Shown piece by piece: positions 49,986-63,050 of a stretch of DNA of 64,000 nucleotides. Position 1 is the stretch's first letter; the number at the start of each line of letters is the position of its first letter. The position numbers and the translations under genes were made by a program. Under the pieces are notes generated by a model. The model had not been told where the DNA came from and ran no database searches. It saw nothing but the letters and a program-made list of their open reading frames with translations. The stretch is from a virus: positions 17,197 to 81,196 of IMG/VR virus record IMGVR_UViG_3300008108_000181; one strand, given 5' to 3'.

Positions 49986-50273
49986 TTATACTTTATAACT
50001 AGCGTTTTTTTCCTCTATCCAAGATTTTCTTAATAGGTTTAAAACTTCCCTTTCTTCAGTTGTATAATAACCTTTTTTTAATACTGAAGATATCAATATC
50101 AAACTCTCATTAATTCCACTAATCCACTCGTTGTGCATTTCTAGAGTTGCACCGTTTAGTGCAGATTTATTTACCTTACTACCTTCAAGGTACATATCCT
50201 TTAACCAATACTCAATATCTAATAAAAGATTTTTTAATTCTTCGGTGAGAATATCACTTCTACCCATTGCCAT
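49986..50273 (-). CDS. Small-protein family member (W...GYY...EVLNLLR...WI)
   Basis: A 95-aa helical protein. LKNLLLDIEYWLKDMYLEG at the start, a middle with ISGINESLILISSVLKKGYYTTEEREVLNLLRKSWIEEKN. The final pattern, G-Y-Y, acidic, L-N-x-x-R-x-x-W-I, is repeated in at least six other small proteins in this window (55620, 56250, 61376, 61723, 61998, 62287). Function unknown. It overlaps nothing and lies six bases after the Cys-rich gene. Confidence 0.65.
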   Translation of the reverse strand: MAMGRSDILTEELKNLLLDIEYWLKDMYLEGSKVNKSALNGATLEMHNEWISGINESLILISSVLKKGYYTTEEREVLNLLRKSWIEEKNASYKV

Positions 50274-50279
50274 ATTATA

Positions 50280-50603
50280 TTACCATTTACCAGCTGGACA
50301 TTGAGATTGACGAGAAAGAGTTTTAGCTGCAATGTTACACCCACACCCACTTACCATTTGATTCGTTTTTTGATTAAGAATCATTTTGTTAGGGTCACAA
50401 GTATTATCGGTTCGTATAGAACATGCATTGCAATGAAGTAATCTTGATTCAGCTAACTTACGAGTTTCTTCATCTAATAAACCAAAATTAGATTTAACTA
50501 GATTTCCCCACCCATCGAGTATTTCACTTAATTTTCCCATAATGCTATTTAATTGTGCTCCTCCTCTTGGGCTCGAACCAAGGACCCCATGATTAACAGT
50601 CAT
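50280..50603 (-). CDS. Small zinc-ribbon-like cysteine protein, second copy
   Basis: A 107-aa reading frame; the first residues overlap the tRNA-Asn, so the true start is probably the ATG MGKLSEILDGWGNLV at about 50540. LLHCNACSIRTDNTCDPNK, MVSGCGCNIAAK and SQCPAGKW give the C-x2-C / C / C-x-C / C pattern shared with the protein at 39210-39491. Likely a zinc-binding phage protein of unknown role. Confidence 0.65.
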   Translation of the reverse strand: MTVNHGVLGSSPRGGAQLNSIMGKLSEILDGWGNLVKSNFGLLDEETRKLAESRLLHCNACSIRTDNTCDPNKMILNQKTNQMVSGCGCNIAAKTLSRQSQCPAGKW

Positions 50604-50631
50604 GTGCTCTAACCAGCTGAGCTAAGGAGGA
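50558..50631 (-). tRNA. tRNA-Asn(GTT)
   Basis: 74 nt. Acceptor TCCTCCT/AGGAGGA, D arm AGCTCAGCTGGTTAGAGC, anticodon loop CTGTTAA in CATGA/TCATG stem, T arm with GGTTCGAGCC. 3' CCA is not encoded. Confidence 0.95.
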
Positions 50632-50644
50632 ATGTTTGCTGGTA

Positions 50645-50717
50645 AGGATGGATTCGAACCACCACGAGGACTTTAGCCAAAGGACATTGCATGCATTGTG
50701 GTCAACCCATTATCCTT
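50645..50717 (-). tRNA. Aberrant tRNA-like element (anticodon unresolved)
   Basis: 73 nt. It has a T arm GGTTCGAATCC and termini that pair (AAGGAT/ATCCTT), but the D arm and anticodon arm do not fold into standard shape: the best central hairpin is CTTT-GGCT-AAAG and the loop has no U33. It could be a degenerate tRNA or a tRNA-like RNA. Confidence 0.4.
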
Positions 50718-50792
50718 CGTTTATCAGTTACTCCCCACCCCCGAGCTCACTTCCAGTTCCCAATCGAGTTCTTTCGTCATAGAATATCATTG

Positions 50793-50877
50793 CAGAGGAG
50801 GAGGGATTCGAACCCCCGTTACCTTTCAGTAAAACGGTTTTCAAGACCGCCGCGTTCAACCGCTCTGCCACTCCTCT
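50793..50877 (-). tRNA. tRNA-Ser(TGA)
   Basis: 85 nt class II tRNA. Acceptor AGAGGAG/CTCCTCT, discriminator G, anticodon loop CTTGAAA, a long variable arm, T arm GGGGGTTCGAATCCCTC. Confidence 0.95.
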
Positions 50878-50880
50878 AAA

Positions 50881-50972
50881 TAGGAATGAGTATTTGCAAC
50901 TACTCAATCCCGAACATGACTTACTCTGGGACGCTGTTCTCATGGGTAGCGTAGTAAGTACTGTTGACTAAT
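50881..50972. other. Spacer between HNH gene and tRNA-Ser
   Basis: A 92-base stretch without ORF. It contains no recognisable T arm, promoter or hairpin. It may be the processed spacer of the tRNA transcript. Confidence 0.3.
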
Positions 50973-51374
50973 TTATCTATATGTTCTACTTGATTTACGA
51001 TTACCAATATTTTTGTAGGTATTGGTAAGTGAATGACAATTAGGACACACTACTCTTAAATTATTTATATTGTTATTATATGCATCTCCATCAATATGGT
51101 CTATTTCTAATGGACTTTTACCGGTATATTTATTGACTTCATCCCAACCACATTTAGAACACTTGTGATTAGATTTATCAATTAAATATCTATTCATCCA
51201 AACTGGTACTGAGTTGCCACCTTTTTGAATAATATTATTACCACTTAACCATTCATTCAGTTTAAGTTTTGTTTGATACTCTCCCTGACATTTATTACCA
51301 CAATAAACATTATTATTTGGAATTGCTTTTTCACAATTTAAACATTTTTTTTCTAATTTTTCTCTATTTCTCAT
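50973..51374 (-). CDS. HNH homing-type endonuclease in the tRNA cluster
   Basis: A 133-aa HNH nuclease. N-terminal zinc knuckle CLNCEKAIPNNNVYCGNKCQ; a second pair in HKCSKCGWDE; the HNH core PLEIDHIDGDAYNNNINNL with catalytic His, and CPNCHSLTNTY at the end. It stands between tRNA-Ser and tRNA-Thr, a common place for phage homing endonucleases, and has its own late-type TATATTTATATT box 17 bases upstream, so it is probably transcribed independently. Confidence 0.9.
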   Translation of the reverse strand: MRNREKLEKKCLNCEKAIPNNNVYCGNKCQGEYQTKLKLNEWLSGNNIIQKGGNSVPVWMNRYLIDKSNHKCSKCGWDEVNKYTGKSPLEIDHIDGDAYNNNINNLRVVCPNCHSLTNTYKNIGNRKSSRTYR

Positions 51375-51391
51375 TGGTATACCTATTCTTT

Positions 51392-51403
51392 AATATAAAT
51401 ATA
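51392..51403 (-). promoter_or_regulatory. Late-type promoter box TATATTTATATT
   Basis: Coding-strand TATATTTATATT, 17 bases upstream of the HNH ATG at 51374. It differs from consensus only in the last base. Confidence 0.55.
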
Positions 51404-51429
51404 GGTTTACCAAATAAAACATCAAAAAG

Positions 51430-51501
51430 AGCTCCCACTCGGAATCGAACCAAGTTATCATGATTACAAGTCATGTGCATCGCCAGCAATGCTTTAGGAG
51501 C
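51430..51501 (-). tRNA. tRNA-Thr(TGT)
   Basis: 72 nt. Acceptor GCTCCTA/TGGGAGC, anticodon loop CTTGTAA in CATGA/TCATG, T arm CTTGGTTCGATTCCGAG. CCA not encoded. Confidence 0.93.
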
Positions 51502-51527
51502 TTTAACTATCGTTCTATTTAATTGAT

Positions 51528-51935
51528 TTACCCTTTCAGTAAATCTTTTTGTTTAATTTTATTTTCTAATTTATCTAAACGAGAATCTAATAAAGATAAA
51601 ACATCTTTTTCATTTTCATCTATATTAGATTGTACCTCTCGTATTTCTTCATCAATTCTTCTATGCAAAATATCTTTTGTATCACCAATAAAATCTAATG
51701 CATCTTTTAATTGAAGTTGTAAATCTCTTACTTCATTATCAATCCTACGATGTACATCATCTGATACATCCTCAACTCTACGATGTAGATTACTAACCTC
51801 ATCGTTTGAACTTCTTTCTAAGAATTGAACTTCTTCTTTCAACTCTTTTACTAAAGTACCTACCCTAACAATAACCACAACCCCTAATACTAAAAGAACT
51901 GTGACCACTCCTAAAACAAAATATACTATTTCCAT
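51528..51935 (-). CDS. Membrane-anchored coiled-coil protein with LHRRID repeats
   Basis: A 135-aa protein. One N-terminal membrane segment (residues ~4-24, VYFVLGVVTVLLVLGVVVIV), then a long coiled coil with repeats VHRRIDNEV, LHRRIDEEI and LHRRVEDV. The heptad phase is continuous. It lies inside the tRNA cluster between tRNA-Thr and tRNA-Glu. Role unknown; such membrane-bound coiled coils may form a scaffold in the infected cell. Confidence 0.65.
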   Translation of the reverse strand: MEIVYFVLGVVTVLLVLGVVVIVRVGTLVKELKEEVQFLERSSNDEVSNLHRRVEDVSDDVHRRIDNEVRDLQLQLKDALDFIGDTKDILHRRIDEEIREVQSNIDENEKDVLSLLDSRLDKLENKIKQKDLLKG

Positions 51936-51984
51936 AATTTTTTCTTTTTTTTAAGTTATACAATATGTGAAAGAACGATAGTTG

Positions 51985-52056
51985 TACTCGATACGGGAAT
52001 CGAACCCGTGTTTTATCCGTGAAAGGGATACGTCCTAACCCCTAGACGAACCGAGC
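51985..52056 (-). tRNA. tRNA-Glu(TTC)
   Basis: 72 nt. Acceptor GCTCGGT/ATCGAGT with two G-T pairs, D arm TCGTCTAGGGGTTAGGA, anticodon loop CTTTCAC, T arm ACGGGTTCGATTCCCGT. Confidence 0.93.
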
Positions 52057-52076
52057 AGGGTAATCATAATAATGAG

Positions 52077-52159
52077 TATCAGGAGCGGGAATCGAACCCG
52101 CACAGCCAATGGCCAACAGATTTTAAGTCTGTCGTGTCTACCTATTCCACCACCCCGAC
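52077..52159 (-). tRNA. tRNA-Leu(TAA)
   Basis: 83 nt class II tRNA. Acceptor GTCGGGG/TCCTGAT with G-T pairs, anticodon loop CTTAAAA in ACAGA/TCTGT, variable arm GGCCATTGGC, T arm GCGGGTTCGATTCCCGC. Two promoters lie just upstream. Confidence 0.93.
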
Positions 52160-52180
52160 ATTTCTTCGTATAAGAACTTG

Positions 52181-52192
52181 TATATAAATATA
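52181..52192 (-). promoter_or_regulatory. Late-type promoter box upstream of tRNA-Leu
   Basis: A perfect TATATTTATATA on the coding strand, 21 bases before the tRNA-Leu 5' end. As no protein start follows, this copy supports a promoter rather than a translation role for the motif. Confidence 0.62.
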
Positions 52193-52199
52193 TACAATA

Positions 52200-52231
52200 C
52201 AAATATACGAAATTTATTTTACAATTCCAAA
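52200..52231 (-). promoter_or_regulatory. Host-type promoter upstream of tRNA-Leu
   Basis: Coding-strand TTTG (52228-52231), spacer of 20 containing GAATTGTAAAA, TATATTTG (52200-52207). It lies immediately upstream of the late-type box, so the tRNA cluster can be made both early and late. Confidence 0.75.
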
Positions 52232-52308
52232 CTTGTAGTTTAGTTAGAAAGTCAGTTGGATAATAAACATATCCAACCGAACTAACTAAACGAACACGTC
52301 TGGGGGAG

Positions 52309-52382
52309 TGGGCCCACTTGGAATCGAACCAAGCACCTACTGATTATGAGTCAGTTGCTCTAACCGAATGAGCTATAGGCCC
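52309..52382 (-). tRNA. tRNA-Met(CAT) (or tRNA-Ile2)
   Basis: 74 nt. Acceptor GGGCCTA/TGGGCCC, D arm TAGCTCATTCGGTTAGAGC, anticodon loop CTCATAA, T arm CTTGGTTCGATTCCAAG. Base modification of the CAT anticodon could make it Ile; the first base pair is G-C, so it is not a typical initiator. Confidence 0.92.
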
Positions 52383-52442
52383 TTAATTTTATATTTATCC
52401 AAAACTACTTTTTTTAAAGAGATTTGGAAGATTATAAATCGT

Positions 52443-52515
52443 GGGTGATTACTGGGATTCGAACCCAAACTAAAAGAACCACAAACTTTCGTGCTACCTT
52501 TACACCATAATCACC
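52443..52515 (-). tRNA. tRNA-His(GTG)
   Basis: 73 nt. Acceptor GGTGATT/AATCACC, discriminator C as in His tRNAs, D arm TGGTGTAAAGGTAGCA, anticodon loop TTGTGGT, T arm TTGGGTTCGAATCCCAG. The anticodon stem has one T-T mismatch. Confidence 0.88.
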
Positions 52516-52517
52516 AT

Positions 52518-52916
52518 TTAGTATTTACTCTTTACTTTTACTACATTCCAATCCATTTCACTATCCTTATTCAATCTAAAGTAATAATGACCACCAGTAG
52601 AATACGCTCTGAACTTTAGCATCCAAAAGATTGTATTTTCTAATTCACCGATTATAGATTCATTACCACTCCATCCTATGGTATGTAATTCAAGCATACC
52701 ATCTTCTTCTTTATATCCATAATCATAATACCACAATTCTTTAATGTAGTTTAGGAGTTGGGTATAATCAGTAGTATTGAAGAACTTACCATATACTAAC
52801 TCACCATCAATCTTTTCACTACCCCAATTACGAATATACTTCAGTGCCTCATCAGTTGGGTAACCATCCTCATCGAACAAATAGAATGGGTATATATAAT
52901 CTAATTTGGTTTCCAT
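52518..52916 (-). CDS. Phage conserved hypothetical protein, 132 aa
   Basis: A 132-aa protein. ELVYGKFFNTTDYTQLLNYIKELWYYDYGY and ELHTIGWSGNESIIGEL, NTIFWMLKFRAYSTGGHYYFRL have the feel of a compact soluble domain with many aromatics; similar proteins occur in phages with unknown function. It sits between tRNA-Gln and tRNA-His inside the tRNA cluster and ends three bases before tRNA-His. Confidence 0.62.
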   Translation of the reverse strand: METKLDYIYPFYLFDEDGYPTDEALKYIRNWGSEKIDGELVYGKFFNTTDYTQLLNYIKELWYYDYGYKEEDGMLELHTIGWSGNESIIGELENTIFWMLKFRAYSTGGHYYFRLNKDSEMDWNVVKVKSKY

Positions 52917-52931
52917 AATTTTATTTTAATG

Positions 52932-53002
52932 TTATCCTACAAGGATTCGAACCTCGAACAACTGAACCAAAATCAGTAGTGTTACCGTTACACCATAGGA
53001 TA
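52932..53002 (-). tRNA. tRNA-Gln(TTG)
   Basis: 71 nt. Acceptor TATCCTA/TAGGATA, D arm TGGTGTAACGGTAACA, anticodon loop TTTTGGT in CTGA/TCAG stem, T arm CGAGGTTCGAATCCTTG. Confidence 0.93.
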
Positions 53003-53067
53003 ATGTTTAGATTTGTAAAACTCATCCCTAACGGGGTAAAGAAACTCCATCTAATAAGTTTTTTGCG

Positions 53068-53158
53068 TAGTCAGGACAGGATTCGAACCTGTACTCCCCA
53101 TTACAGGGAGCGTGATACAGCCACCAATGTAGCTGTGGCACCCAATTGCCACCTGACT
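53068..53158 (-). tRNA. Aberrant class II tRNA-like gene (possibly Tyr GTA)
   Basis: 91 nt. Acceptor AGTCAGG/CCTGACT is perfect and the T arm ACAGGTTCGAATCCTGT is canonical. Between them lie three hairpins: GTGGCA/TGCCAC, CAGCTAC/GTGGCTG with an ATTG loop, and CTCC-CTGTAAT-GGGG. If the last is the anticodon arm it reads GTA (Tyr), but then an extra 20-nt hairpin sits in the D region and no variable arm remains. It has its own host-type promoter (53211-53242), so it is probably expressed. Confidence 0.55.
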
Positions 53159-53210
53159 ATTTTATTTCAATTTCGGTAGGAGAACTTCTTTCTCCCTTAA
53201 CTCAACAATA

Positions 53211-53242
53211 CAAAGATACGAAAAAGATTTCATATTTCCTAA
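53211..53242 (-). promoter_or_regulatory. Host-type promoter upstream of the aberrant tRNA
   Basis: Coding-strand TTAG (53239-53242), 20-base spacer with GAAATATGAA, TATCTTTG (53211-53218). It directs transcription into the tRNA-like gene at 53068-53158 about 45 bases below. Confidence 0.55.
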
Positions 53243-53263
53243 TGTTTTATTAAATAAAAAACC

Positions 53264-53312
53264 CCAACTTAATTAAAGTTAGGGTTTCTAAAAATCGGTT
53301 GATTTTTAGAAA
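53264..53312 (-). terminator. Double hairpin terminator after lipoprotein gene
   Basis: Directly after the stop comes a perfect 12-bp stem TTTCTAAAAATC/GATTTTTAGAAA (53285-53296 and 53301-53312), then a second, slightly imperfect hairpin around ACCCCAACTT/AAGTTAGGGT and a T-rich tract. It separates the lipoprotein gene from the tRNA cluster. Confidence 0.78.
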
Positions 53313-53522
53313 TTACTTCACTGACTGCTCAGAAACTGGCTCAGCTACTTCTTCACCTGCAGCTGCACCGGCAACTTCAAGAGTTTCTTCAGTTTGTACG
53401 GCTGCGGAATCAACTTGTACTGAATCAACTGCTACAGAGTCAGTTCCTTCAGATTGAACTCCTTTACCACCACAAGCAACCATTACTGTTGCAAGTACTG
53501 CGAATAGAAATACTTTTTTCAT
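53313..53522 (-). CDS. Small phage lipoprotein
   Basis: A 69-aa protein with a lipoprotein signal peptide MKKVFLFAVLATVMVACGG (lipobox Cys17). The mature 52 residues are Val/Ala/Glu/Ser-rich and acidic, without Cys, and probably disordered. Phage lipoproteins can block receptors (as Llp in T5) or act as spanins. No inner-membrane spanin partner is evident next to it. It forms a single unit with a 190-base leader and a double terminator. Confidence 0.78.
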   Translation of the reverse strand: MKKVFLFAVLATVMVACGGKGVQSEGTDSVAVDSVQVDSAAVQTEETLEVAGAAAGEEVAEPVSEQSVK

Positions 53523-53714
53523 TTTTCTTTTTTTTTAATTGTTAAACATTTGTTTTACTACATAAATTGATTTAGACCTTCTAAATCTTTTTATACTCTT
53601 TTTTAACTCGTATAATAAGTATAACGAATTAATAAAAACATTAAAAATCCAACCCGAGTATCTTTCATCACCTATAAGGATTTATGAATATTTGATGTTT
53701 TCAATTTACTTTTA
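53523..53714. other. Long leader of the lipoprotein gene
   Basis: About 190 bases between the promoter at 53715-53746 and the lipoprotein ATG. No ORF of note. It holds an A-rich tract directly before the start and an imperfect palindrome near CGTATAATAAGTATAACG. A regulated leader is possible but no known riboswitch pattern is seen. Confidence 0.35.
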
Positions 53715-53746
53715 CAAAGATACGAAACTTTTTTCAGAATTCCTAA
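53715..53746 (-). promoter_or_regulatory. Host-type promoter, lipoprotein unit
   Basis: Coding-strand TTAG (53743-53746), spacer containing GAATTCTGAA, TATCTTTG (53715-53722). -33 deviates from TTTG. Confidence 0.55.
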
Positions 53747-53753
53747 TGCTTTG

Positions 53754-54020
53754 TTAAAATCTTTTCGATATTTTTAAAATTAATTCTTGTTCTTCATCTG
53801 TCAAGGATAGAAAGTTTGAACTAATCTTACCTAGTTGTTCTCTAAACAACTGCTCATTCAAACTTACATTATCATAATCGGACCCAGCGTAGATTTGTTT
53901 TTCCAATTCAGTTTGGTAATATCCATCTATATAGAGTTCGTCTACTAGTTCTTGTTTTTCATGTGAGGATAATCCATCAATAATTTCATCCAAATCAATA
54001 TCCATGTTAATGTATGCCAT
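53754..54020 (-). CDS. Hypothetical acidic helical protein, 88 aa
   Basis: MAYINMDIDLDEIIDGLSSHEKQELVDELYIDGY at the start. The frame is open from 54032, but the promoter -7 box ends 10 bases above that ATG, so the ATG at 54020 is a better start. Acidic, helical, no cysteine. Proteins of this type occur in other phages; function unknown. Confidence 0.6.
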   Translation of the reverse strand: MAYINMDIDLDEIIDGLSSHEKQELVDELYIDGYYQTELEKQIYAGSDYDNVSLNEQLFREQLGKISSNFLSLTDEEQELILKISKRF

Positions 54021-54041
54021 AGTTTTTCTCATTTTGTTTTA

Positions 54042-54073
54042 CAAATATACGAAAAAAAATTCAGAATTCCTAC
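54042..54073 (-). promoter_or_regulatory. Host-type promoter
   Basis: Coding-strand GTAG (54070-54073), spacer with GAATTCTGAA, TATATTTG (54042-54049). It sets the start of the 88-aa gene at 54020. Confidence 0.6.
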
Positions 54074-54078
54074 TACTT

Positions 54079-55014
54079 CTAAAAGATATTTTTAATATAT
54101 GGTATAGGGTTTATTTCAGTTGTATCCTTCTCAATATGCTCTAATATGGAATCTGCTAAGTATTGATGCTGTATTAATGTTGGGTGTTCGTTTTTAGTAT
54201 TTGGAAATTCCTTATCGATTCTTTTATGTGGAAAGGTACATTCCCATTCTTCATAATATTTGTAATAGTTTCCATCATACCCCTTTAAAGGTACGAGTAA
54301 TGATTCTATGTAAGAATTATTGCGTATATGGTCAAATGATGTAGAATTACACCACGAATCAATCAGATAAAGTTTTGCAGTTTTCTGATACTTTTTAAGT
54401 TGTTCTATGTGGTACTCGAGATTTCTCTGTCTATGTGGATGAAATATAAAATCAACATAAGTTATAATATCACCTTGTTTTTCCCACTCTAACATTTTTT
54501 GAAAATTGAATTTAGGAATACCTTCATATTTTTCCAAATAATCAATTCTACTTTGTGTCCATTCATCTATTGGTTCATTATTAATAACTTTATGAACGTA
54601 ATCAACATAGACATTAAATGGTTTGGGTCTGTCTATTTTACAAAAATCACAATTACAATTAATATCAGAATGTAAAAAATTTCTATCAATTGAAGTAAAA
54701 AAATGTATAATATATTTTGTATCTAAACTTAAATTCTCTTCAATTAGTAATCGTGATGAATGCCAATCTCCTCCATTATCTTTTCTAACAATTGATTTTA
54801 AACCAAGTTTTTTTTCTATTAATCCTGCAAATCTATTCTCTTCTCTAAATTTTATTGATTCAGGAGTTTGTTTATACAACAATCCTCCAGATTCACTATC
54901 ATCAACCCACTCATTATAAACTTCTCGTTGAGATTTCCAATACGGAGTATCTATGTAAAGTTCCAATCCTTCTCCCCATACAAAAGAGTCACCGGAATAA
55001 ATTATATTATTCAT
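54079..55014 (-). CDS. SGNH-hydrolase-like protein
   Basis: A 311-aa protein. NIIYSGDSFVWGEGLEL (residues 3-19) is an SGNH block I with the nucleophile Ser, as in the 206-aa protein at 33.6 kb. DNGGDWHSSRLLIEE (~78-92) may be block III with the Asn replaced; the block V Asp/His are not assigned. CNCDFCKIDRP (~119-129) adds a Cys cluster. Likely an esterase acting on an unknown ester, low specificity by eye. It is unusually long for a stand-alone SGNH domain. Confidence 0.6.
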   Translation of the reverse strand: MNNIIYSGDSFVWGEGLELYIDTPYWKSQREVYNEWVDDSESGGLLYKQTPESIKFREENRFAGLIEKKLGLKSIVRKDNGGDWHSSRLLIEENLSLDTKYIIHFFTSIDRNFLHSDINCNCDFCKIDRPKPFNVYVDYVHKVINNEPIDEWTQSRIDYLEKYEGIPKFNFQKMLEWEKQGDIITYVDFIFHPHRQRNLEYHIEQLKKYQKTAKLYLIDSWCNSTSFDHIRNNSYIESLLVPLKGYDGNYYKYYEEWECTFPHKRIDKEFPNTKNEHPTLIQHQYLADSILEHIEKDTTEINPIPYIKNIF

Positions 55015-55067
55015 TATTGCTGTATTGATTTTTTATTAATAATAGATATTTAGAATTCTAATTTATT

Positions 55068-55292: not shown

Positions 55293-55294
55293 TG

Positions 55295-55630
55295 TTATTG
55301 TAAGAAAGTTATTAGATAAGGTGATATTTTATATCCAACATACGCACCTAATGCGGTTGGGACTGGGAATACTATAAACTTACCCAAATCAGTAACATAC
55401 TTTGGTCTGTTTACAATCTTACCCAAGAAGAAGTAGAATATCATATAAGAGATAAGAACCGCCATATCAATTCTTAAACTAACTGCTACGATTACAACTG
55501 CACCCAAAAATCCATATAGGAAGTTGTATAACACTCCATCAATCCAAACTTCTTGTGGTGATGATGAATTGTAATCTTCTACTATGGTAGATAAGGGTAA
55601 TTTCTTTTTTCTTCTTAATTTACTTTCCAT
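55295..55630 (-). CDS. Three-pass membrane protein, 111 aa
   Basis: A 111-aa protein with a basic N-terminus and three membrane segments (about residues 33-50, 52-70, 88-108). FYFFLGKIVNRPKYVTDLGKFIVFPVP joins the last two. The start overlaps the upstream small-family gene by 11 bases. Function unknown. Confidence 0.6.
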   Translation of the reverse strand: MESKLRRKKKLPLSTIVEDYNSSSPQEVWIDGVLYNFLYGFLGAVVIVAVSLRIDMAVLISYMIFYFFLGKIVNRPKYVTDLGKFIVFPVPTALGAYVGYKISPYLITFLQ

Positions 55631-55943
55631 TAGTGTAATCGTTTAACTTTTTAACTGCTTTGTTTAATCGTGTTTCTTGTATATATCTATCTCTCATTTC
55701 ATTTAGAAACACTTGTTGTTCTTTGGTATAGAATTGTACTCTTGATATTTCCGATAATTCATCTATCCGATTTCTCCAAATAGGTTCTTGTGGGGTCCCG
55801 AATGGGTGTGGTTGTTTTAATTTCTCTATACACCAATCTCGAAGGATAATGATTGCTCTTTTCTTGTCATCGGTAATCAGGTAATCCTCCCAATAACCCG
55901 AACTCAAATTATTCAAGTTCATCAGAATTTGTTTCATATCCAT
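55620..55943 (-). CDS. Small-protein family member (107 aa)
   Basis: Contains the family pattern: IIILRDWCIEKLKQ, then ISRVQFYTKEQQVFLNEMRDRYIQ, i.e. W, a helix, a turn, and L-N-E-x-R-x-x-Y-I. It is longer at the N-terminus than the copies at 61-62 kb and ends in a basic helix. Function unknown; see the finding on the dispersed family. Confidence 0.62.
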   Translation of the reverse strand: MDMKQILMNLNNLSSGYWEDYLITDDKKRAIIILRDWCIEKLKQPHPFGTPQEPIWRNRIDELSEISRVQFYTKEQQVFLNEMRDRYIQETRLNKAVKKLNDYTNGK

Positions 55944-55970
55944 ACTCGTCCGCTTTTGTCGGTCAAACTT

Positions 55971-56243
55971 TTAATTTTTAAATGGATCCCTTTTTATTGA
56001 TAGTTGCTCTCTTCTCTCCATCTCCAATGCTTTCAACCTCTGTCCTCGTATCAACTTAATTAAGTGTACTAGGATGATTATCCCATTCAAGGTCATTACC
56101 GATACCTCATCGTTATAATAACCCCACAATGCCCATCCCATACATCCTACGGAGTTGACTACTCTCATCTTCACCCCATCGAATCCAAACGATGATAGTG
56201 TCACTATGGTGGATATCCATCCTAATAATTCTATTGGTGTCAT
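55971..56243 (-). CDS. Membrane protein resembling SemiSWEET/YgjV half-transporter
   Basis: A 90-aa protein with three membrane segments. LGWISTIVTLSSFGFDGVKMRVVNSVGCMGWALWGYY and LNGIIILVHLIKLIRG follow the PQ-loop/SemiSWEET-like layout with a conserved small-residue turn before the second helix and an Asn in the third. SemiSWEETs work as dimers and move sugars; phage copies have unknown cargo. The C-terminal tail is charged and cytoplasmic. Family assignment is moderate. Confidence 0.55.
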   Translation of the reverse strand: MTPIELLGWISTIVTLSSFGFDGVKMRVVNSVGCMGWALWGYYNDEVSVMTLNGIIILVHLIKLIRGQRLKALEMERREQLSIKRDPFKN

Positions 56244-56249
56244 ACTGAG

Positions 56250-56546
56250 TTAGAAAGGTAGTGTGTCTTTATCTTTTAAATATAAGTAACGGATGTGATT
56301 GATAATGAATCTATCTTCTTCATCGTACCCATCTTGTTTAAGTATCTTTACTATCAAACTTATATACTCCATTACTTGTAGTGGGTCAATTGATAGAACT
56401 GTATTTGATGATAGGGATGATTTGTTAGTCATCATCCAATCTTGGAGTTTGACTAAAAACTTTTGTTGAGCTGGGGATAAGACATATCGTGTGAATTGTG
56501 TCCCATATCCTAGTCCATTGGTTGTGTTTGTAGTTTGAGTACTCAT
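56250..56546 (-). CDS. Small-protein family member (98 aa)
   Basis: LSPAQQKFLVKLQDWMMTNK, then a variable middle, IVKILKQDGYDEEDRFIINHIRYLYLK: the same W...GY...hydrophobic-N-x-x-R order as the copies at 49986 and 61-62 kb. It has a longer Thr-rich N-terminus. Function unknown. Confidence 0.62.
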   Translation of the reverse strand: MSTQTTNTTNGLGYGTQFTRYVLSPAQQKFLVKLQDWMMTNKSSLSSNTVLSIDPLQVMEYISLIVKILKQDGYDEEDRFIINHIRYLYLKDKDTLPF

Positions 56547-56556
56547 TCGTTCTTAA

Positions 56557-56939: not shown

Positions 56940-56944
56940 ATGAT

Positions 56945-57178: not shown

Positions 57179-57203
57179 AACTTATTTCTTTTTAGTTGGT
57201 TTT

Positions 57204-57710
57204 TTATATTTTTTCAAATTTAAAAAATTGATTAAGTTTTGCATTAGTAGGTGCATGATTGGAAACTCTAGCACTATCTCGAGAATATGTATATGGTCTA
57301 CGATTCTCAAACTTACCACCTCCCATTAAGTAGGTAAAATCATTCCAATCTAAAATATGGATTTGACAATCAAATTGTTTTTCCAAATCTTCAAGATGTT
57401 CACCAACACTCATGTGTATAGGTGAATAAGGATGTAGAATATAGATATTTGTTAATCCATACTTACGAATATATTTCCAACATTTATGTGGAAGCTTATC
57501 CCCAATCGAACCACTTATTCCTTGTGCAATACAATCCATGTGAAATGTACCATTGATGATGAAATCAATACCAGAAGAAAATCGTTTATATACAATTCCC
57601 ATAGATGTTAAGTATTTTTCAACTCTATCTTCTAATGCCCTTCCTCTTTCATGTACTTGTTCGGTAAATTGTACAATACGAGTCTCCCCTATTTTAGTAA
57701 GTGTTCTCAT
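57204..57710 (-). CDS. Putative nuclease-like protein (PD-(D/E)XK candidate)
   Basis: A 168-aa protein. ERGRALEDRVEKYLTSMGIVYKRFSSGIDFIINGTFHMDCIAQG has the order helix with Glu, strand, strand with Asp expected of PD-(D/E)XK nucleases, followed by GDKLPHKCWKYIRKYG and IYILHPYSP. The final catalytic Lys is not clearly placed. It overlaps the 56-aa membrane protein stop by four bases. If correct it could cut host or competing DNA; the call is low. Confidence 0.42.
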   Translation of the reverse strand: MRTLTKIGETRIVQFTEQVHERGRALEDRVEKYLTSMGIVYKRFSSGIDFIINGTFHMDCIAQGISGSIGDKLPHKCWKYIRKYGLTNIYILHPYSPIHMSVGEHLEDLEKQFDCQIHILDWNDFTYLMGGGKFENRRPYTYSRDSARVSNHAPTNAKLNQFFKFEKI

Positions 57711-57877
57711 TTCTTTTTAGTTGGTTTTTCAGTAGGTTCACTTAAATCTTCATCAAAAAGGTCTTCACCTTTGTAATCGGGATGATTCTTACTCATGTAA
57801 TCAATTCCATTGACCCATTGGATACCAATGAATACTGAAACCAATACACATACAAATATACTAATTACTAGTTCCAT
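57707..57877 (-). CDS. Small membrane protein, 56 aa
   Basis: A 56-codon frame starting MELVISIFVCVLVSVFIGIQ (one membrane segment) followed by an acidic/Lys-rich cytoplasmic tail ending TEKPTKKK. Its TGA overlaps the ATG of the 168-aa gene (ATGA), so the frame is well supported. Function unknown. Confidence 0.6.
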   Translation of the reverse strand: MELVISIFVCVLVSVFIGIQWVNGIDYMSKNHPDYKGEDLFDEDLSEPTEKPTKKK

Positions 57878-57888
57878 ATTGTTTTTGT

Positions 57889-57984
57889 TTATCGTTTATT
57901 ACGCAATCCTTTAATTCCATCCATGAGTACCATTACACAAAAGGTCAAGGTTACGATTGATAATGCAAATGTCATTAAGTCCAT
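57889..57984 (-). CDS. Membrane micro-protein, 31 aa
   Basis: A 31-codon frame, MDLMTFALSIVTLTFCVMVL then DGIKGLRNKR: one membrane segment and a basic tail. It is the first frame after an exact host-type promoter (leader ~17 bases) and leads into the 56-aa membrane protein. Its length fits small phage membrane regulators; function unknown. Confidence 0.55.
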   Translation of the reverse strand: MDLMTFALSIVTLTFCVMVLMDGIKGLRNKR

Positions 57985-58007
57985 ATCTTATTGATTTTTA
58001 ATAGTCA

Positions 58008-58039
58008 CAAATATACAAATTATTTTTCACAATTCCAAA
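58008..58039 (-). promoter_or_regulatory. Host-type promoter, exact consensus
   Basis: Coding-strand TTTG (58036-58039), spacer GAATTGTGAAAAATAATTTG, TATATTTG (58008-58015). It shows the full conserved form of the early class. Confidence 0.78.
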
Positions 58040-58192
58040 TTAGAAGTTTGACCAACTGAAACTTTCAGAACCACAAGAACATTTAAATTGTCTTGCCCAC
58101 TTACCAAGGGTGAAGTTGTAGGTTCTCACACTTTTTTTATTACAACGATAACAGTTGCATGATTTCTTTTCGGTGTTGTGGTATCTGGCCAT
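58040..58192 (-). CDS. Small zinc-ribbon protein, 50 aa
   Basis: A 50-codon frame, MARYHNTEKKSCNCYRCNKK at the start and FKCSCGSESFSWSNF at the end, with five cysteines in C-x-C-x2-C / C-x-C arrangement, a compact zinc ribbon. Its stop lies in the -33 box of the next promoter. A promoter at 58229-58260 lies about 37 bases upstream. Probably a small zinc protein binding RNA, DNA or a host enzyme. Confidence 0.6.
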   Translation of the reverse strand: MARYHNTEKKSCNCYRCNKKSVRTYNFTLGKWARQFKCSCGSESFSWSNF

Positions 58193-58228
58193 ATCTTTTA
58201 TATTTTAAGTTTCTTTCTCATTACTCTA

Positions 58229-58260
58229 CTAATATACGAAATGTTTTTCACATTTCCAAA
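58229..58260 (-). promoter_or_regulatory. Host-type promoter upstream of zinc-ribbon gene
   Basis: Coding-strand TTTG (58257-58260), spacer GAAATGTGAAAAACATTTCG, TATATTAG (58229-58236). Confidence 0.7.
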
Positions 58261-58537
58261 CGCTTTGATAAAAAAGATAAAAAATAAACCTACCACACTT
58301 GAGACCGATATGAGAGAGATAAAAGTGTGTGGTAGGTGATCCTGACGGATACTTGGGATAGGAGAGAATGGCCTCAAAAAATAAGGGAGATGAAGTATCC
58401 GGCTTTCTTTGCTCCCCAAATGGGAAACTGTCACGCAATCGGTTTTATTATTTGCTGGCTTCAACTTCATCTTGGTATTATACACCGTTAGAGTAGTATC
58501 TCAATCACGGCTTGGTCTTATACCCTTTTGGTATAAG
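58261..58537 (-). ncRNA. Candidate structured noncoding RNA
   Basis: About 275 bases with no convincing gene: the open frames present use codons unlike the rest of the phage. Strong paired elements are visible: TCTTATACC/GGTATAAGA (58515-58537, spanning the stop of the 60-aa membrane gene), GGATACTT/AAGTATCC about 50 bases apart, and ACCTACCACAC/GTGTGGTAGGT, whose downstream arm is followed on the minus strand by TTTATTTTTT, as in an intrinsic terminator. G+C is above the surrounding genes. The likely transcript is read from the promoter at 58730 or processed from it. Class unknown; it does not resemble tmRNA, 6S or RNase P by eye. Confidence 0.5.
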
Positions 58538-58700
58538 AGTTAATTAGTAGTATGGTGGTTAATACCGAACATACAATGATTAATGTTAGTGGGTCTGCAA
58601 TCCATAGAAGGGCAAGACCACATATTGTCATGATGATTGGTTCTACGGAAATCAAGAACACAACAAGGACAGCGAGAGTAAGGGGGATGTACTTTAACAT
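58518..58700 (-). CDS. Two-pass membrane protein, 60 aa
   Basis: MLKYIPLTLAVLVVFLISVEPIIMTICGLALLW followed by LTLIIVCSVLTTILLIN: two membrane segments and a basic end. It lies about 30 bases below a host-type promoter. The stop codon lies inside the hairpin that starts the candidate RNA. Function unknown. Confidence 0.58.
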   Translation of the reverse strand: MLKYIPLTLAVLVVFLISVEPIIMTICGLALLWIADPLTLIIVCSVLTTILLINSYTKRV

Positions 58701-58729
58701 AGTTTTATCTTTTATCTTTTATAACATTA

Positions 58730-58761
58730 CAAATATACGAAATGTTTTTCACAATTCCTAC
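58730..58761 (-). promoter_or_regulatory. Host-type promoter
   Basis: Coding-strand GTAG (58758-58761), spacer GAATTGTGAAAAACATTTCG, TATATTTG (58730-58737). Spacer is identical in its first ten bases to the promoter at 58008. Confidence 0.62.
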
Positions 58762-58778
58762 TATTTTGGAAAATATTT

Positions 58779-59015
58779 TTAGAAATTATATGCATTCCAA
58801 ATTCTTTCGGCTGGAGCGAGGTATTGTTCACCAACTCTATGGTTATGTTCCTTATTCAGTTCATAAGGAGAAGGTAGTACCTCCATAGTACAAGTACCAT
58901 GATAAGGATGTATACTAATCAACTTTGCCCGTAGGGTTGGGGAGAAGTTATCTGAAACCGGGAATCCAATTCTTGATTTGAGTTCTTCTGCGTAGTTTAT
59001 TCTGAAACGGTTCAT
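58779..59015 (-). CDS. Hypothetical protein, 78 aa
   Basis: A 78-aa soluble protein (MNRFRINYAEELKSRIGFPV at the start; ERIWNAYNF at the end). It follows the 49-aa gene by one base. Function unknown. Confidence 0.55.
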   Translation of the reverse strand: MNRFRINYAEELKSRIGFPVSDNFSPTLRAKLISIHPYHGTCTMEVLPSPYELNKEHNHRVGEQYLAPAERIWNAYNF

Positions 59016-59016
59016 A

Positions 59017-59166
59017 TTAGTTATGGTTTAAGGTCCAAACTCCATTTTCCATCATTGAAGTAAATACCTTTCGTGGCATTACTCTTTCTACTCCATTGGG
59101 GAATAGGACCAGGACGATTGATTGTCCGTAGTGTAACCAGGTTCGGGTGATGTGGGGTTGTGTCAT
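59017..59166 (-). CDS. Hypothetical protein, 49 aa
   Basis: A 49-codon frame, MTQPHITRTWLHYGQSIVLV at the start. Beta-rich. It is the first gene after an exact host-type promoter (leader ~25 bases) and adjoins the 78-aa gene. The promoter spacing and adjoining start are the main support. Confidence 0.55.
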   Translation of the reverse strand: MTQPHITRTWLHYGQSIVLVLFPNGVERVMPRKVFTSMMENGVWTLNHN

Positions 59167-59196
59167 ATCGTTTATGGTTTATCTCTTATTACTCTA

Positions 59197-59228
59197 CTAA
59201 TGTACGAATAAAAGCTCACAATTCCAAA
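59197..59228 (-). promoter_or_regulatory. Host-type promoter
   Basis: Coding-strand TTTG (59225-59228), spacer GAATTGTGAGCTTTTATTCG, TACATTAG (59197-59204). Confidence 0.68.
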
Positions 59229-59232
59229 TTTT

Positions 59233-59406
59233 TTAGGAATTATTTTTTGCTCTTCTTATGGCTAGAATCATATTGAAAGCCTCTAGTTGAGCTTCGGTAG
59301 GAGTGTATCCATTGTTCAGAGCTTGGTACTGATAAGTTTCATATAATTTTTTCTCCTTCGGACTGAGGGAAGAAAAGAATTCAAAGTTGGGGTTAATCTT
59401 ACTCAT
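59233..59406 (-). CDS. Hypothetical protein, 57 aa
   Basis: A 57-codon frame: MSKINPNFEFFSSLSPKEKK at the start, then LYETYQYQALNNGYTPTEAQ. Helical with a turn. It lies between the 78-aa gene upstream and the next promoter; its end carries the -33 region. Likely real by codon use. Confidence 0.5.
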   Translation of the reverse strand: MSKINPNFEFFSSLSPKEKKLYETYQYQALNNGYTPTEAQLEAFNMILAIRRAKNNS

Positions 59407-59433
59407 ATCTTTTTAGTTTTAATGTTTTAATAA

Positions 59434-59661
59434 TTAAGGGGCCATCAACCATTGTGAATAAACTTCGTCATAAGTGACACCCATGATTTCGGATAGTCTA
59501 CTAAACACTCGTTCTCGAATCACACTATCACCTACTCCGATGTACTCATAGACATCTTCGTAGTTATCTAACACTCGGAACAAACCTTCAAAGGTTGCAT
59601 TCTCATTGATTTCGATTCCCATTTCATCTGTCGGGAAGTTCTCAAGGTAGTACTCTCTCAT
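59434..59661 (-). CDS. Hypothetical protein, 75 aa
   Basis: MREYYLENFPTDEMGIEINE at the start; LFRVLDNYEDVYEYIGVGDSVIRERVFSRLSEIMG suggests a helix-turn-helix-like pair of helices near the centre. It follows a host-type promoter at 59694-59725; the ATG at 59661 is preferred over 59670 on leader length. Function unknown. Confidence 0.55.
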   Translation of the reverse strand: MREYYLENFPTDEMGIEINENATFEGLFRVLDNYEDVYEYIGVGDSVIRERVFSRLSEIMGVTYDEVYSQWLMAP

Positions 59662-59693
59662 GTTTCTCATATCTTTTATCTCTTATTACAATA

Positions 59694-59725
59694 CTAATAT
59701 AGAAATAAATGCTGAGAAATACAAG
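59694..59725 (-). promoter_or_regulatory. Host-type promoter
   Basis: Coding-strand CTTG (59722-59725), 20-base spacer, TATATTAG (59694-59701). Confidence 0.58.
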
Positions 59726-59768
59726 TACTTTATTAAACTTTTTTATAACTACTTGATAATCAAGGAAA

Positions 59769-60011
59769 TTATTTTAAAGATATATGATATTTTTTTAAGG
59801 CCTCTTGGTGTTTTTTATTGATTATTTTAAACCTTCTACCTAAGTCATTTAGTTTTTCTCGTTGGATTCTATCGTACATTTGTTCTTTCAAGATTCCATT
59901 AATCATATCAAATACCTCAAGATCCATAAGGTAACTAGGATATTCCATCATAAGTTCTCTTAACCATTCATCTTGTCGGTAATTCAGGCTCCAGTATTGT
60001 GTCTTTGCCAT
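59769..60011 (-). CDS. Possible distant small-family member (80 aa)
   Basis: MAKTQYWSLNYRQDEWLREL and MINGILKEQMYDRIQREKLNDLGRRFKI: the order W, helix, L-N-D-x-x-R-x-x-I resembles the small-protein family (55620, 56250, 61376 and others), but the G-Y turn is absent. Basic. Its membership is uncertain. Confidence 0.5.
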   Translation of the reverse strand: MAKTQYWSLNYRQDEWLRELMMEYPSYLMDLEVFDMINGILKEQMYDRIQREKLNDLGRRFKIINKKHQEALKKYHISLK

Positions 60012-60027
60012 TCTATAATTACATTTC

Positions 60028-60225
60028 TTAATCTAGTTCTCCATCGTAACGATATTCAACCTCATCTCTATATGAGGTAACATCTTGTTGGTGTTCTACA
60101 CCATCACATTCGTCCCAAGGACAATCTTCAACTTTTTCTAAAGCTTCTTCATATGTTTCAGCTTCAACATGGAGGGTCCAAGCCTCTTCCACATATCGTT
60201 CGGCAATAATAATAAATTTTGGCAT
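60028..60225 (-). CDS. Small acidic protein homologous to C-terminus of next gene
   Basis: A 65-aa protein: FIIIAERYVEEAWTLHVEAETYEEALEKVED, then an acidic end. The order strand, V-x-x-x-W-T, A-x-x-x-x-E-A, then an acidic D/E-rich tail matches the last ~60 residues of the 192-aa protein upstream (TVQTWTHTVMA...EAYRKAEEG). DpnD/PcfM-like small domains share this layout. Function unknown. Confidence 0.6.
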   Translation of the reverse strand: MPKFIIIAERYVEEAWTLHVEAETYEEALEKVEDCPWDECDGVEHQQDVTSYRDEVEYRYDGELD

Positions 60226-60236
60226 ATTGTGTTTGT

Positions 60237-60815
60237 TTAAATTGTTTCGTAATCTATCTCACCGTAATCATCAAAATCATCGTTCTCATCATGACCCTCA
60301 CCTTCTTCTGCTTTTCTATAAGCTTCACATACACTTCTAGCCATTACCGTATGAGTCCAAGTTTGAACTGCAGTTCTTGAGCATTGAATGGTGTATTCTG
60401 ATTCTTCGTTGTTTTCCCAATCTTCATCATCTTCCTCACATTCATCAGTATTGATTCTTGTTGGAGAATTCTCTCTAGTCATCTTATCACACTCCTCGAT
60501 GATTGAGTTTCGAAACTTTTTCAAATCATCGTATGAGTTAAAATCAAAACTAAATGAACCCACCTCGGAGTTAATAGTAACTTGAACGTGCTCGGGTGTA
60601 TCATTTTGATATTGGTTCTCTCTAACATACCTTACTGAATGTCGGTAGTTCTCGCCGAAATCAACTAATGAATTTTCGGGATACAAAGTATACCATGGCC
60701 AGTTCTCATCCGAACTCTTTACCATCTTATACTCGTTCTCTAACTCTTGTAGTTCTTTAATAACATTGGAATATCGTTTCTCAAAACTACTCTCCCATTT
60801 TTTTGTTCTTTTCAT
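60237..60815 (-). CDS. Two-part acidic protein, 192 aa
   Basis: N-terminal ~125 residues: basic helix KKWESSFEKRYSNVIKELQEL, then beta strands (HVQVTINSEVGSFSFDFN). C-terminal ~60 residues: EYTIQCSRTAVQTWTHTVMARSVCEAYRKAEEG, homologous to the 65-aa protein at 60028. The linker is very acidic. Not recognised as a whole; perhaps a fusion of an unknown domain with the small domain. Confidence 0.58.
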   Translation of the reverse strand: MKRTKKWESSFEKRYSNVIKELQELENEYKMVKSSDENWPWYTLYPENSLVDFGENYRHSVRYVRENQYQNDTPEHVQVTINSEVGSFSFDFNSYDDLKKFRNSIIEECDKMTRENSPTRINTDECEEDDEDWENNEESEYTIQCSRTAVQTWTHTVMARSVCEAYRKAEEGEGHDENDDFDDYGEIDYETI

Positions 60816-60834
60816 AATTTAAAATAATTTTAAG

Positions 60835-61365
60835 TTATCCCCACCACGAATGTTGGGTCACATTTATTTGTTGATATTTGGTTTTAATTTTATATTTTAA
60901 GTATTGTGAAATAGGGTCATCGTTGGTTTCCAATTTATTCAGTTTGGAGTGCACCCAACCCATGTATGTATTCAATTCAATTTTACATTTTGTATACGAT
61001 TGTTTGTTTAACTTGAGCTGTATATTTTCTTCCTTGGTAGTATAGTGATACGATGCGTTATCCTTGATGAATTGTTTCATAACATCATTACTTAAATTCA
61101 TTTCAATAATTCTTTCAGCTAACCCTTTCAATCCATAGTGATGTTCTTTACATAGATTGGTATGGTTTCCTGAATCAAACACTTGTTCAAATGCTTCTTT
61201 GGAATAATACCCACTAAAAAACTCTTTAGTTTGAGTCATATAAAAAATGTTGTTTCTAATACCATCTACTACATAACGATGTAGATGTGGTGCGGTTTTG
61301 ACAATAGACATGCTATGTTCAATGTACTCCACCAATTCATTTAAGTTTTTAGGTTTATTATTCAT
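60835..61365 (-). CDS. Hypothetical protein, 176 aa
   Basis: A 176-aa protein, basic. LCKEHHYGLKGLAERIIEMN in the centre (a Cys and two His) and KCKIELNTYMGWVHSKLNKLETN. The Cys/His group recalls HNH-like nucleases, but no D/E-H-N core is seen. No family recognised. Confidence 0.55.
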   Translation of the reverse strand: MNNKPKNLNELVEYIEHSMSIVKTAPHLHRYVVDGIRNNIFYMTQTKEFFSGYYSKEAFEQVFDSGNHTNLCKEHHYGLKGLAERIIEMNLSNDVMKQFIKDNASYHYTTKEENIQLKLNKQSYTKCKIELNTYMGWVHSKLNKLETNDDPISQYLKYKIKTKYQQINVTQHSWWG

Positions 61366-61375
61366 AACTTATATT

Positions 61376-61651
61376 TTATATACTCATTACTAAATTTATA
61401 TCTAATGAATTCCTTATCCATCTCATTCGTAACTCATTCAACCAATCCTTGTCCGTATCCCAATAGTATCCATCAGATAAAATCGTTGTTACTCTTTTCT
61501 TATATAGATACAAATCAAAATCTTCACCTACTACTTTGATTCTCCCACCCTCATGTCCACCTTTCATATTATCCAACCACTTATTGGTTAGCCAGTATTC
61601 CATGTCTGCCAGATAGTATCTTTGTTTATAACTTAAATTAATTGATTTCAT
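61376..61651 (-). CDS. Small-protein family member (91 aa)
   Basis: SYKQRYYLADMEYWLTNKW, then RVTTILSDGYYWDTDKDWLNELRMRWIRNSLDINLV. It shares the Q-R-x-x-L...W start, the I-L-x-x-G-Y/W-Y turn and the L-N-E-L-R-x-R-W/F/Y-I-x-x-S-L/M-D end with its neighbours at 61723 and 61998. Its leader is almost identical over 36 bases to that of the gene at 62287-62511. Function unknown. Confidence 0.68.
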   Translation of the reverse strand: MKSINLSYKQRYYLADMEYWLTNKWLDNMKGGHEGGRIKVVGEDFDLYLYKKRVTTILSDGYYWDTDKDWLNELRMRWIRNSLDINLVMSI

Positions 61652-61682
61652 AATTTTAAAATAAAGTTTTCAACCCTTCACT
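61647..61682. repeat. 36-bp repeated leader, copy 1
   Basis: It matches positions 62507-62542 with two mismatches and spans the start codon and leader of a small-family gene. Both copies include coding-strand AGTGAAGGGTTGAAAA. Confidence 0.75.
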
Positions 61683-61722
61683 ACAATTCGGACACCCAGT
61701 CAGATATAAAGAGATATAGTTA

Positions 61723-62001
61723 CTATATCCATATATCATCAACAAGATGTACATCTAAAGACTTCTTTAAAAATCTTTCTCTTAACTCATTCAACCATTT
61801 CTTATCAGATTCCGAATACCATCCATATAGAAGAATACCTTCTATCTCCATCTTATATCTTCTTATAGTAGAATCAAGACCATTTACTTTCAATCTACCA
61901 TCATCACCATCTTCAAGGTCTCGGATATAATCTGCATAAACCCAATCCTTTAACTTCTCTAAGAAGTGTCGTTGTTCAAAACTTAAATGTATTCTACTCA
62001 T
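61723..62001 (-). CDS. Small-protein family member (92 aa)
   Basis: MSRIHLSFEQRHFLEKLKDW at the start, IEGILLYGWYSESDKKWLNE and LRERFLKKSLDVHLVDDIW at the end: all family marks. The frame is open to 62007, but the ATG at 62001 overlaps the upstream TGA (ATGA) and is preferred. Together with 61376 and 61998 it forms a local tandem array. Confidence 0.68.
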   Translation of the reverse strand: MSRIHLSFEQRHFLEKLKDWVYADYIRDLEDGDDGRLKVNGLDSTIRRYKMEIEGILLYGWYSESDKKWLNELRERFLKKSLDVHLVDDIWI

Positions 62002-62279
62002 AGCCATATACCATTAACATAATGTATATCCATAGAATCATTAATATATCTTTCTCTTAACTCATTCAACATATCTCTTTCAACATTAGTATACCAACCA
62101 CCTCCCTCTCGGGAAAGAATATCATTAACATAGAAATAGTACCTACTTAATACCTTTTCCTTACCATTTATCTTAATAGGAGTATCTTCACCCCAAAGCA
62201 TGATTTGAGTATTATGTATCCATAGGGACATCTTTTGTAAATAGTATCGTTGTCCAAAAGTTAGGTTATGTGTCACCAT
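61998..62279 (-). CDS. Small-protein family member (93 aa)
   Basis: LTFGQRYYLQKMSLWIHNTQ, ILSREGGGWYTNVERDMLNE, LRERYINDSMDIHYVNGIWL. It is the closest relative of the 61723 gene by eye (same Q-R-x-x-L, G-W-Y, L-N-E-L-R-E-R and D-I-W endings). Stop overlaps the next start. Function unknown. Confidence 0.68.
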   Translation of the reverse strand: MVTHNLTFGQRYYLQKMSLWIHNTQIMLWGEDTPIKINGKEKVLSRYYFYVNDILSREGGGWYTNVERDMLNELRERYINDSMDIHYVNGIWL

Positions 62280-62286
62280 AGGTTTA

Positions 62287-62511
62287 TTAATTATCTAAAG
62301 AGTAATACTTCCAATCCTTTATCCACTCCTCTCGTATCTCATTCAACATGATTTGGTCAAAGTAATCATAATGACCAAGAGATAGGATAGTCATGATTCG
62401 TTGTATAGTCAAGGGGTCATATCTTCTTTTCAACCATAACAAGTTAGTGGTAGTAATCAACTCTAACCACATCCTTTGTTTATCATTTACCGTTAATGTT
62501 CTTTCTTTCAT
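62287..62511 (-). CDS. Small-protein family member (74 aa, shorter)
   Basis: LTVNDKQRMWLELITTTNLLWL, then IMTILSLGHYDYFDQIMLNEIREEWIKDW. Same order of marks but shorter variable middle. First gene after the unusual 62.5-62.8 kb noncoding region; its leader is a near-copy of the leader of the 61376 gene. Confidence 0.66.
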   Translation of the reverse strand: MKERTLTVNDKQRMWLELITTTNLLWLKRRYDPLTIQRIMTILSLGHYDYFDQIMLNEIREEWIKDWKYYSLDN

Positions 62512-62542
62512 AATTTTAAAATAAGATTTTCAACCCTTCACT
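62507..62542. repeat. 36-bp repeated leader, copy 2
   Basis: Near-identical (34 of 36 bases) to 61647-61682. Confidence 0.75.
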
Positions 62543-63038: not shown

Positions 63039-63050
63039 ATCTTATATTGA

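What the first reader, a model, noticed from the sequence alone, without database searches (positions are those of the whole stretch)
49986..62511. Dispersed family of at least seven small phage proteins
Proteins at 49986, 55620, 56250, 61376, 61723, 61998 and 62287 (perhaps 59769) share: an early Q-x-x-x-L...W helix, a variable middle, I-L-x-x-G-W/Y/H-Y, an acidic turn, and L-N-E-L/I-R-x-x-W/Y/F-I. Four are in tandem. Such copy number in one phage points to selection for diversity, for instance against varied host targets. No known family is recognised.
Basis: seen in the sequence. Interest (0 to 1): 0.75.

Follow-up and report, generated by a model that had tools for sequence, protein, structure and literature searches.

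The report
Fast-changing phage array of small proteins
A bacteria-infecting virus carries eight distantly related copies of one small, previously unnamed helical protein, and larger relatives keep a tandem array of such genes at the same genomic place whose members change much faster than their neighbours, which suggests (but does not prove) a toolkit aimed at varied bacterial targets.

Summary
All eight window proteins, including the doubtful one at 59769, belong to one family: leave-one-out HMMs recover each (E 8e-4 to 7e-19) while the first non-member scores 0.2 or worse. It is the largest paralog family among 112 predicted genes; the next has two members. Pfam, PHROGs, NCBIfam, PADLOC and PDB give no convincing match. 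Two AlphaFold models of about 20%-identical members share one small fold: three helices with two short strands. Related phages of about 288 kb carry 9-11 copies. Their tandem array sits, as here, just downstream of an LPD29 gene and a second conserved gene. A profile built without phage G102 finds about ten members in it; reversed decoys score 0.22 or worse. Between sister phages G091 and G102 array genes share a median 35% identity, against 78% for neighbours (p about 1e-6), and array genes lack the sister signal of their flanks. A separate copy is a conserved singleton. Most likely (inferred, about 0.4) these are host-takeover or anti-defence binding proteins on a common scaffold. No target is known; function is untested.

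The parts
62287..62511 (-). family member h, 74 aa, first gene of the tandem block
   Evidence: leave-one-out HMM E 2.1e-7
61998..62279 (-). family member g, 93 aa
   Evidence: leave-one-out HMM E 4.4e-15
61723..62007 (-). family member f, 94 aa; overlaps g by 10 bases
   Evidence: leave-one-out HMM E 7e-19; AlphaFold model pLDDT 79.7, pTM 0.71
61376..61651 (-). family member e, 91 aa
   Evidence: leave-one-out HMM E 2e-16
59769..60011 (-). family member d, 80 aa, most diverged
   Evidence: leave-one-out HMM E 8.4e-4, best non-member 0.2
56250..56546 (-). family member c, 98 aa
   Evidence: leave-one-out HMM E 4e-10
55620..55943 (-). family member b, 107 aa
   Evidence: leave-one-out HMM E 8e-6
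49986..50273 (-). family member a, 95 aa; positional counterpart of the conserved singleton of related phages (between a Cys-rich protein gene and a radical SAM gene)
   Evidence: leave-one-out HMM E 2.7e-9; synteny with L218, L090
61652..61682 (-). 31-base leader of e, duplicated upstream of h
   Evidence: 29/31 identical; score 27 v. shuffled maximum 14
62512..62542 (-). 31-base leader of h, copy of the leader of e
62796..63038 (-). small conserved gene immediately upstream of the array in this phage and in G084, G091, G102 (50% identity to G084)
63051..63584 (-). LPD29-domain gene, second conserved upstream neighbour of the array
   Evidence: Pfam PF18847 E 3.8e-7, above cut-off; same place in G084, G091, G102
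63622..63654 (-). promoter-like element of Bacteroidota type (TTTGG-N-TAnnTTAG) upstream of LPD29
   Evidence: consensus match only
55971..56243 (-). YgjV/SemiSWEET-like small membrane protein gene between members c and b; its homologue also lies inside the G102 array
   Evidence: PF10688 E 0.0051 here, 1.9e-6 in G102; single copy per record
50280..50603 (-). Cys-rich (zinc-ribbon-like) protein gene upstream of member a; the listed ORF starts upstream, the conserved part is the last 86 residues
   Evidence: orthologues in G007, G015, G084, G091, G102

Best explanation
Shown: the genes are one family of 74-121-residue proteins (a few longer, with extensions) with one predicted fold (beta, helix, helix, beta, helix). 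They exist as (1) a conserved singleton next to a Cys-rich protein gene and (2) an array at a fixed place downstream of an LPD29 gene, where members are duplicated, replaced and diverge faster than the neighbours. Inferred: the fold is a small, tolerant binding scaffold. The core (L, L, W, I, L, G-x-Y, L, W/Y) is kept, while most other positions and the loop between helices 1 and 2 vary. Array members would be made early in infection and each bind a cellular protein, most likely of a defence or host-control system, so that gain, loss and divergence of copies track the varied defences of the hosts. The singleton would do a constant job.
For: Single fold in two members about 20% identical. Fixed array position with changing content in four phages. 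Array v. neighbours 35% v. 78% identity in sister phages. No sister signal in six array sets, against +4 to +43 points in six flank or singleton sets. Duplicated leader. Largest paralog family in the contig. Bacteroidota-type promoter-like elements concentrate on the coding strand of this region: six of the window's nine strict matches lie beyond 46 kb. Precedent from the literature: anti-defence genes cluster in mobile elements (PMC7648647), and phages amplify anti-defence loci under pressure from immunity (PMC13096335).
Against: No target, toxicity or anti-defence activity is known; PADLOC gives no hit better than 0.016. Conserved polar residues across the family (Q13 in 29/38, N68 in 30/38, R71 in 27/38, [KR]64) hint at a shared function beyond the fold. 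The G084/G102 pair shows no significant excess divergence (p 0.35). 'Early' rests only on promoter-like matches and gene position. Part of the low G091/G102 identity comes from pairing non-orthologous paralogs after gene replacement.
Confidence: 0.4

Rival explanations
1. All members share one biochemical activity, for example binding nucleic acid, RNA polymerase or a small membrane protein, and the paralogs form hetero-oligomers or stage-specific versions of one regulator. Divergence follows from co-evolution of subunits rather than of host targets.
For: Conserved polar face Q13, [KR]64, N68, R71. One long member in G091 and G102 carries the domain with extra N- and C-terminal parts. Family genes lie beside small membrane protein genes: YgjV-like next to b/c here and inside the G102 array, and another beside the singleton in G007, G084, G091 and G102.
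Against: No similarity to a known nucleic-acid-binding fold. Gene content of the array changes freely between phages, which fixed subunits would resist.
Confidence: 0.25
2. The array serves phage-phage conflict (superinfection exclusion or immunity to a rival's effector), so that alleles differ by strain.
For: Array history is uncoupled from the flanks: G102 shares 68-72% identical members with the more distant G084 that are missing from its sister G091. Membrane-protein neighbours.
Against: The proteins look soluble and helical, without signal or membrane segments; no direct evidence.
Confidence: 0.15
3. Duplicates under relaxed constraint: gene birth and decay without selection for diversity.
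For: f/g dN about equal to dS (0.60/0.64); very low identities.
Against: All copies are intact, the core motif is kept in 38 sequences, and the same array persists in four phages at one place.
Confidence: 0.12
4. The similarity is only generic helical composition.
For: Pairwise scores of d and b are weak.
Against: Leave-one-out recovery, detection in a phage not used for training, decoys at 0.22 or worse.
Confidence: 0.01

Closest known systems
Clustered small anti-defence proteins of phages and mobile elements (anti-CRISPR and anti-defence clusters, e.g. PMC7648647)
   Same: Small proteins in a variable cluster with gain and loss of genes
   Different: Known clusters mostly collect unrelated folds (own knowledge); here one fold is duplicated. 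No defence target is known
Segmental amplification of anti-defence loci in T6 (SegB, PMC13096335)
   Same: Extra copies of short phage genes as an answer to host immunity
   Different: Those are recent repeats; here copies are old, diverged and stable at one locus
LPD29 and other polyvalent-protein domains (PMC5512222)
   Same: A standalone LPD29 gene is the fixed upstream neighbour of the array
   Different: Family members have no LPD domain; the link is positional only
Three-helix bundle binders (SCIN-D 3t46, designed minibinders 8s1x, 9cwp)
   Same: Closest arrangement of helices, Z 5.8-5.9, rmsd 2.7-3.4 over 61-69 residues
   Different: Z is within the range of common helical arrangements; no sequence similarity, and beta elements differ

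Membership tests
Known protein families (Pfam, PHROGs, NCBIfam) | Score above the family cut-off or a clear E-value in several members | tested here: not met
   Best single hits are 0.00059 (Pfam) and 0.0019 (PHROGs) in one of 38 members each, none shared by two members
Anti-defence (anti-CRISPR-like) proteins | Inhibits a defence system | not testable with these tools
   Needs infection assays
Anti-defence (anti-CRISPR-like) proteins | Small proteins in a variable, clustered accessory locus | tested here: met
Csm2/Cas11-type small subunits | Sequence or fold match to Cas11/Csm2 | tested here: inconclusive
   One PADLOC hit at 0.025; Csm2 chains at Z 2.8-3.4, too weak
Helix-turn-helix DNA-binding proteins | HTH or winged-helix profile or fold match | tested here: inconclusive
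   HTH_16 E 0.19 in one member only; no significant fold match
Homing endonucleases (a usual cause of phage paralogs) | GIY-YIG, HNH or LAGLIDADG nuclease domain | tested here: not met
   No such match in any member

The most novel reading that the evidence does not exclude
A diversifying phage arsenal built on a single small fold: a fixed locus where copies are duplicated, exchanged between phages and diverge so that each binds a different host defence or control protein, while one separated copy keeps an ancestral task.
Probability: 0.3. Interest if true: 0.78.

Novelty: new variant of a known kind. Interest (0 to 1): 0.58.

Why it matters
If the array members bind different host proteins, one fold and one locus would give a ready-made way to find unknown bacterial defences: pull down each paralog and read the targets. 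It also gives a searchable family (HMM, model, neighbours) in a large group of T4-like phages, probably of Bacteroidota, where most early genes have no annotation. The contrast between the conserved singleton and the changing array makes the question directly testable.

Tried and rejected
DNA and protein searches of 50,697 named phages found no relative. A weak tblastn hit of one array member to a Salmonella phage ParB-like protein (E 0.1) did not hold up in profile comparison. Weak hits in the 484-kb record LR756508 (GIY-YIG and other long proteins), in G099 (an 'IITExQY' type protein) and in a rumen bacterium (17 residues) were judged chance. phrog_4807 matched only one member (E 0.0019; one search found no other). 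Fold searches gave no hit below E 0.97 in the PDB and 0.11 in viral models; Z up to 5.9 is within the range of common helical arrangements. The membrane protein beside the singleton could not be shown to be YgjV-like. Sequence patterns for the core three members found nothing in IMG/VR, so relatives were reached through marker genes (gp6, phoH, LPD29). Literature searches for an expanded small-protein family in phages gave nothing direct.

Full report
Setting. The window is bases 17197-81196 of an 81,196-base IMG/VR record, classed as linear and probably a fragment. Its baseplate wedge protein has 37% identity to Flavobacterium phage immuto and 42% to Microcystis phage Mel-JY01, and 136 relatives in IMG/VR. 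Promoter-like elements are of Bacteroidota type (TTTGG ... TAnnTTTG). It is thus a T4-like phage, probably of Bacteroidota (inference).

Observation. Shuffled Smith-Waterman scores place e, f and g at z 20-26 to each other and most others at z 4-9; d (59769) is weak pairwise. A leave-one-out profile recovers every member, d at 8.4e-4, against non-members at 0.2 or worse. phmmer clustering of 112 predicted genes gives one group of six from this family; no other group exceeds two. Members e and h share a 31-base leader with 29 identities.

Known families. No Pfam, PHROGs, NCBIfam or PADLOC model matches more than one member, and none convincingly. The PDB by sequence gives nothing better than 0.16.

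Relatives. Short-pattern scans with single members failed, so kin phages were found by marker genes and searched with the family profile. Members occur in G007, G086 and G088 (one each), G015 (two), G044 (two), and as arrays in G084 (288,673 bases, 9-10 matches), G091 (287,455 bases, 9) and G102 (45,154 bases, 11). Most kin records lack a match, but many are fragments that do not cover the region, so prevalence cannot be stated. G102 was not used to build the tested profile: its members scored 8e-19 to 0.0075 (one further at 0.14), while reversed decoys began at 0.22. G007, G086 and G088 carry identical singletons and are not independent.

Two genomic places. (1) Singleton: Cys-rich protein, small membrane protein, family member, in G007, G084, G091 and G102, with a radical SAM gene after it in G084; the window has Cys-rich protein, member a, radical SAM. 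Its identity is 58-72% between phages. (2) Array: an LPD29 gene, then a conserved small gene, then the tandem members, in the window, G084, G091 and G102. LPD29 is PF18847, above cut-off in the window, below it in G102. In the window further members (b, c, d) lie a few kilobases downstream.

Rate and history. Reciprocal best hits between G091 and G102: array median 35% (n=8), other genes 78% (n=20), Mann-Whitney p=1.3e-6; G084/G091 37% v. 65%, p=0.03; G084/G102 47% v. 62%, p=0.35, not significant. In three-way sets the sister pair G091/G102 is closer by 4 to 43 points for five flanking genes and the singleton, but by -18 to +0.5 points for six array sets. Two G102 members are 68-72% identical to G084 members that G091 lacks. 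So the array is decoupled from its flanks by replacement, exchange or fast change. Part of the low identity comes from pairing members that are not true orthologues. dN/dS of e/f/g is near saturation and is not used as evidence.

Fold. AlphaFold2 of f (13 sequences): pLDDT 79.7, pTM 0.71, beta 5-7, helix 10-32, hairpin 38-47, helix 48-61, beta 63-65, helix 66-81. AlphaFold2 of the G007 singleton (38 sequences): pLDDT 90.6, pTM 0.78, beta 6-8, helix 11-28, helix 35-54, beta 56-58, helix 62-76. Same order of elements; f adds a hairpin in the variable middle. The two models were compared by order of elements, not superposed. Foldseek finds nothing significant; the best VIA matches are three-helix bundles at Z 5.9, which may be only a common arrangement. 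Column statistics show a conserved hydrophobic core, the G-x-Y turn, and the polar positions Q13, [KR]64, N68 and R71.

Interpretation. The family, fold, two genomic contexts and unusual divergence are shown. That array members are early host-directed binding proteins is inference by analogy with anti-defence clusters (PMC7648647) and amplification of anti-defence loci (PMC13096335). A single shared activity with co-evolving paralogs, phage-phage conflict and relaxed constraint remain open. The recurrent small membrane protein neighbours (YgjV-like between c and b and inside the G102 array; another beside the singleton) are a lead for partner searches.

Noticed in passing
window 9031-11508 and 7838-9034 (- strand); also L098 15187-16245 and 16369-19083: The phage encodes a TonB-dependent outer-membrane receptor (Plug, CarboxypepD_reg, OMP barrel) next to a lipoprotein-like gene. 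A similar pair is seen in the ORF list of the related record G044. Unusual cargo for a T4-like phage.
   Followed up: partly
window 46141-63654, - strand: Bacteroidota-type promoter-like sites (TTTGG-N-TAnnTT[TA]G) are concentrated on the coding strand; nine strict matches on the - strand of the window, none on the + strand.
   Followed up: partly
window 50557-53158: Cluster of nine tRNA-like genes, the last (53067-53158) with an unassigned four-base anticodon.
   Followed up: no
window 16892-18610, 27412-28347, 48126-49901: NodU-like carbamoyltransferase, UvdE UV endonuclease and a radical SAM protein; the radical SAM gene also follows the family singleton in G084.
   Followed up: no
window 39210-39491 and 50280-50603: Two paralogous proteins, one of them the Cys-rich protein beside member a, in one contig.
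   Followed up: no
L122-L129: The eight closest phoH relatives (88-95% identity) all end within about 6 kb upstream of phoH, on the side where the family lies here, while extending much further on the other side. This may reflect a hypervariable region that breaks assemblies.
   Followed up: partly
L217 16019-16627, L236 13479-14096: About 200-residue proteins containing the family domain plus conserved N- and C-terminal parts without any Pfam match.
   Followed up: partly
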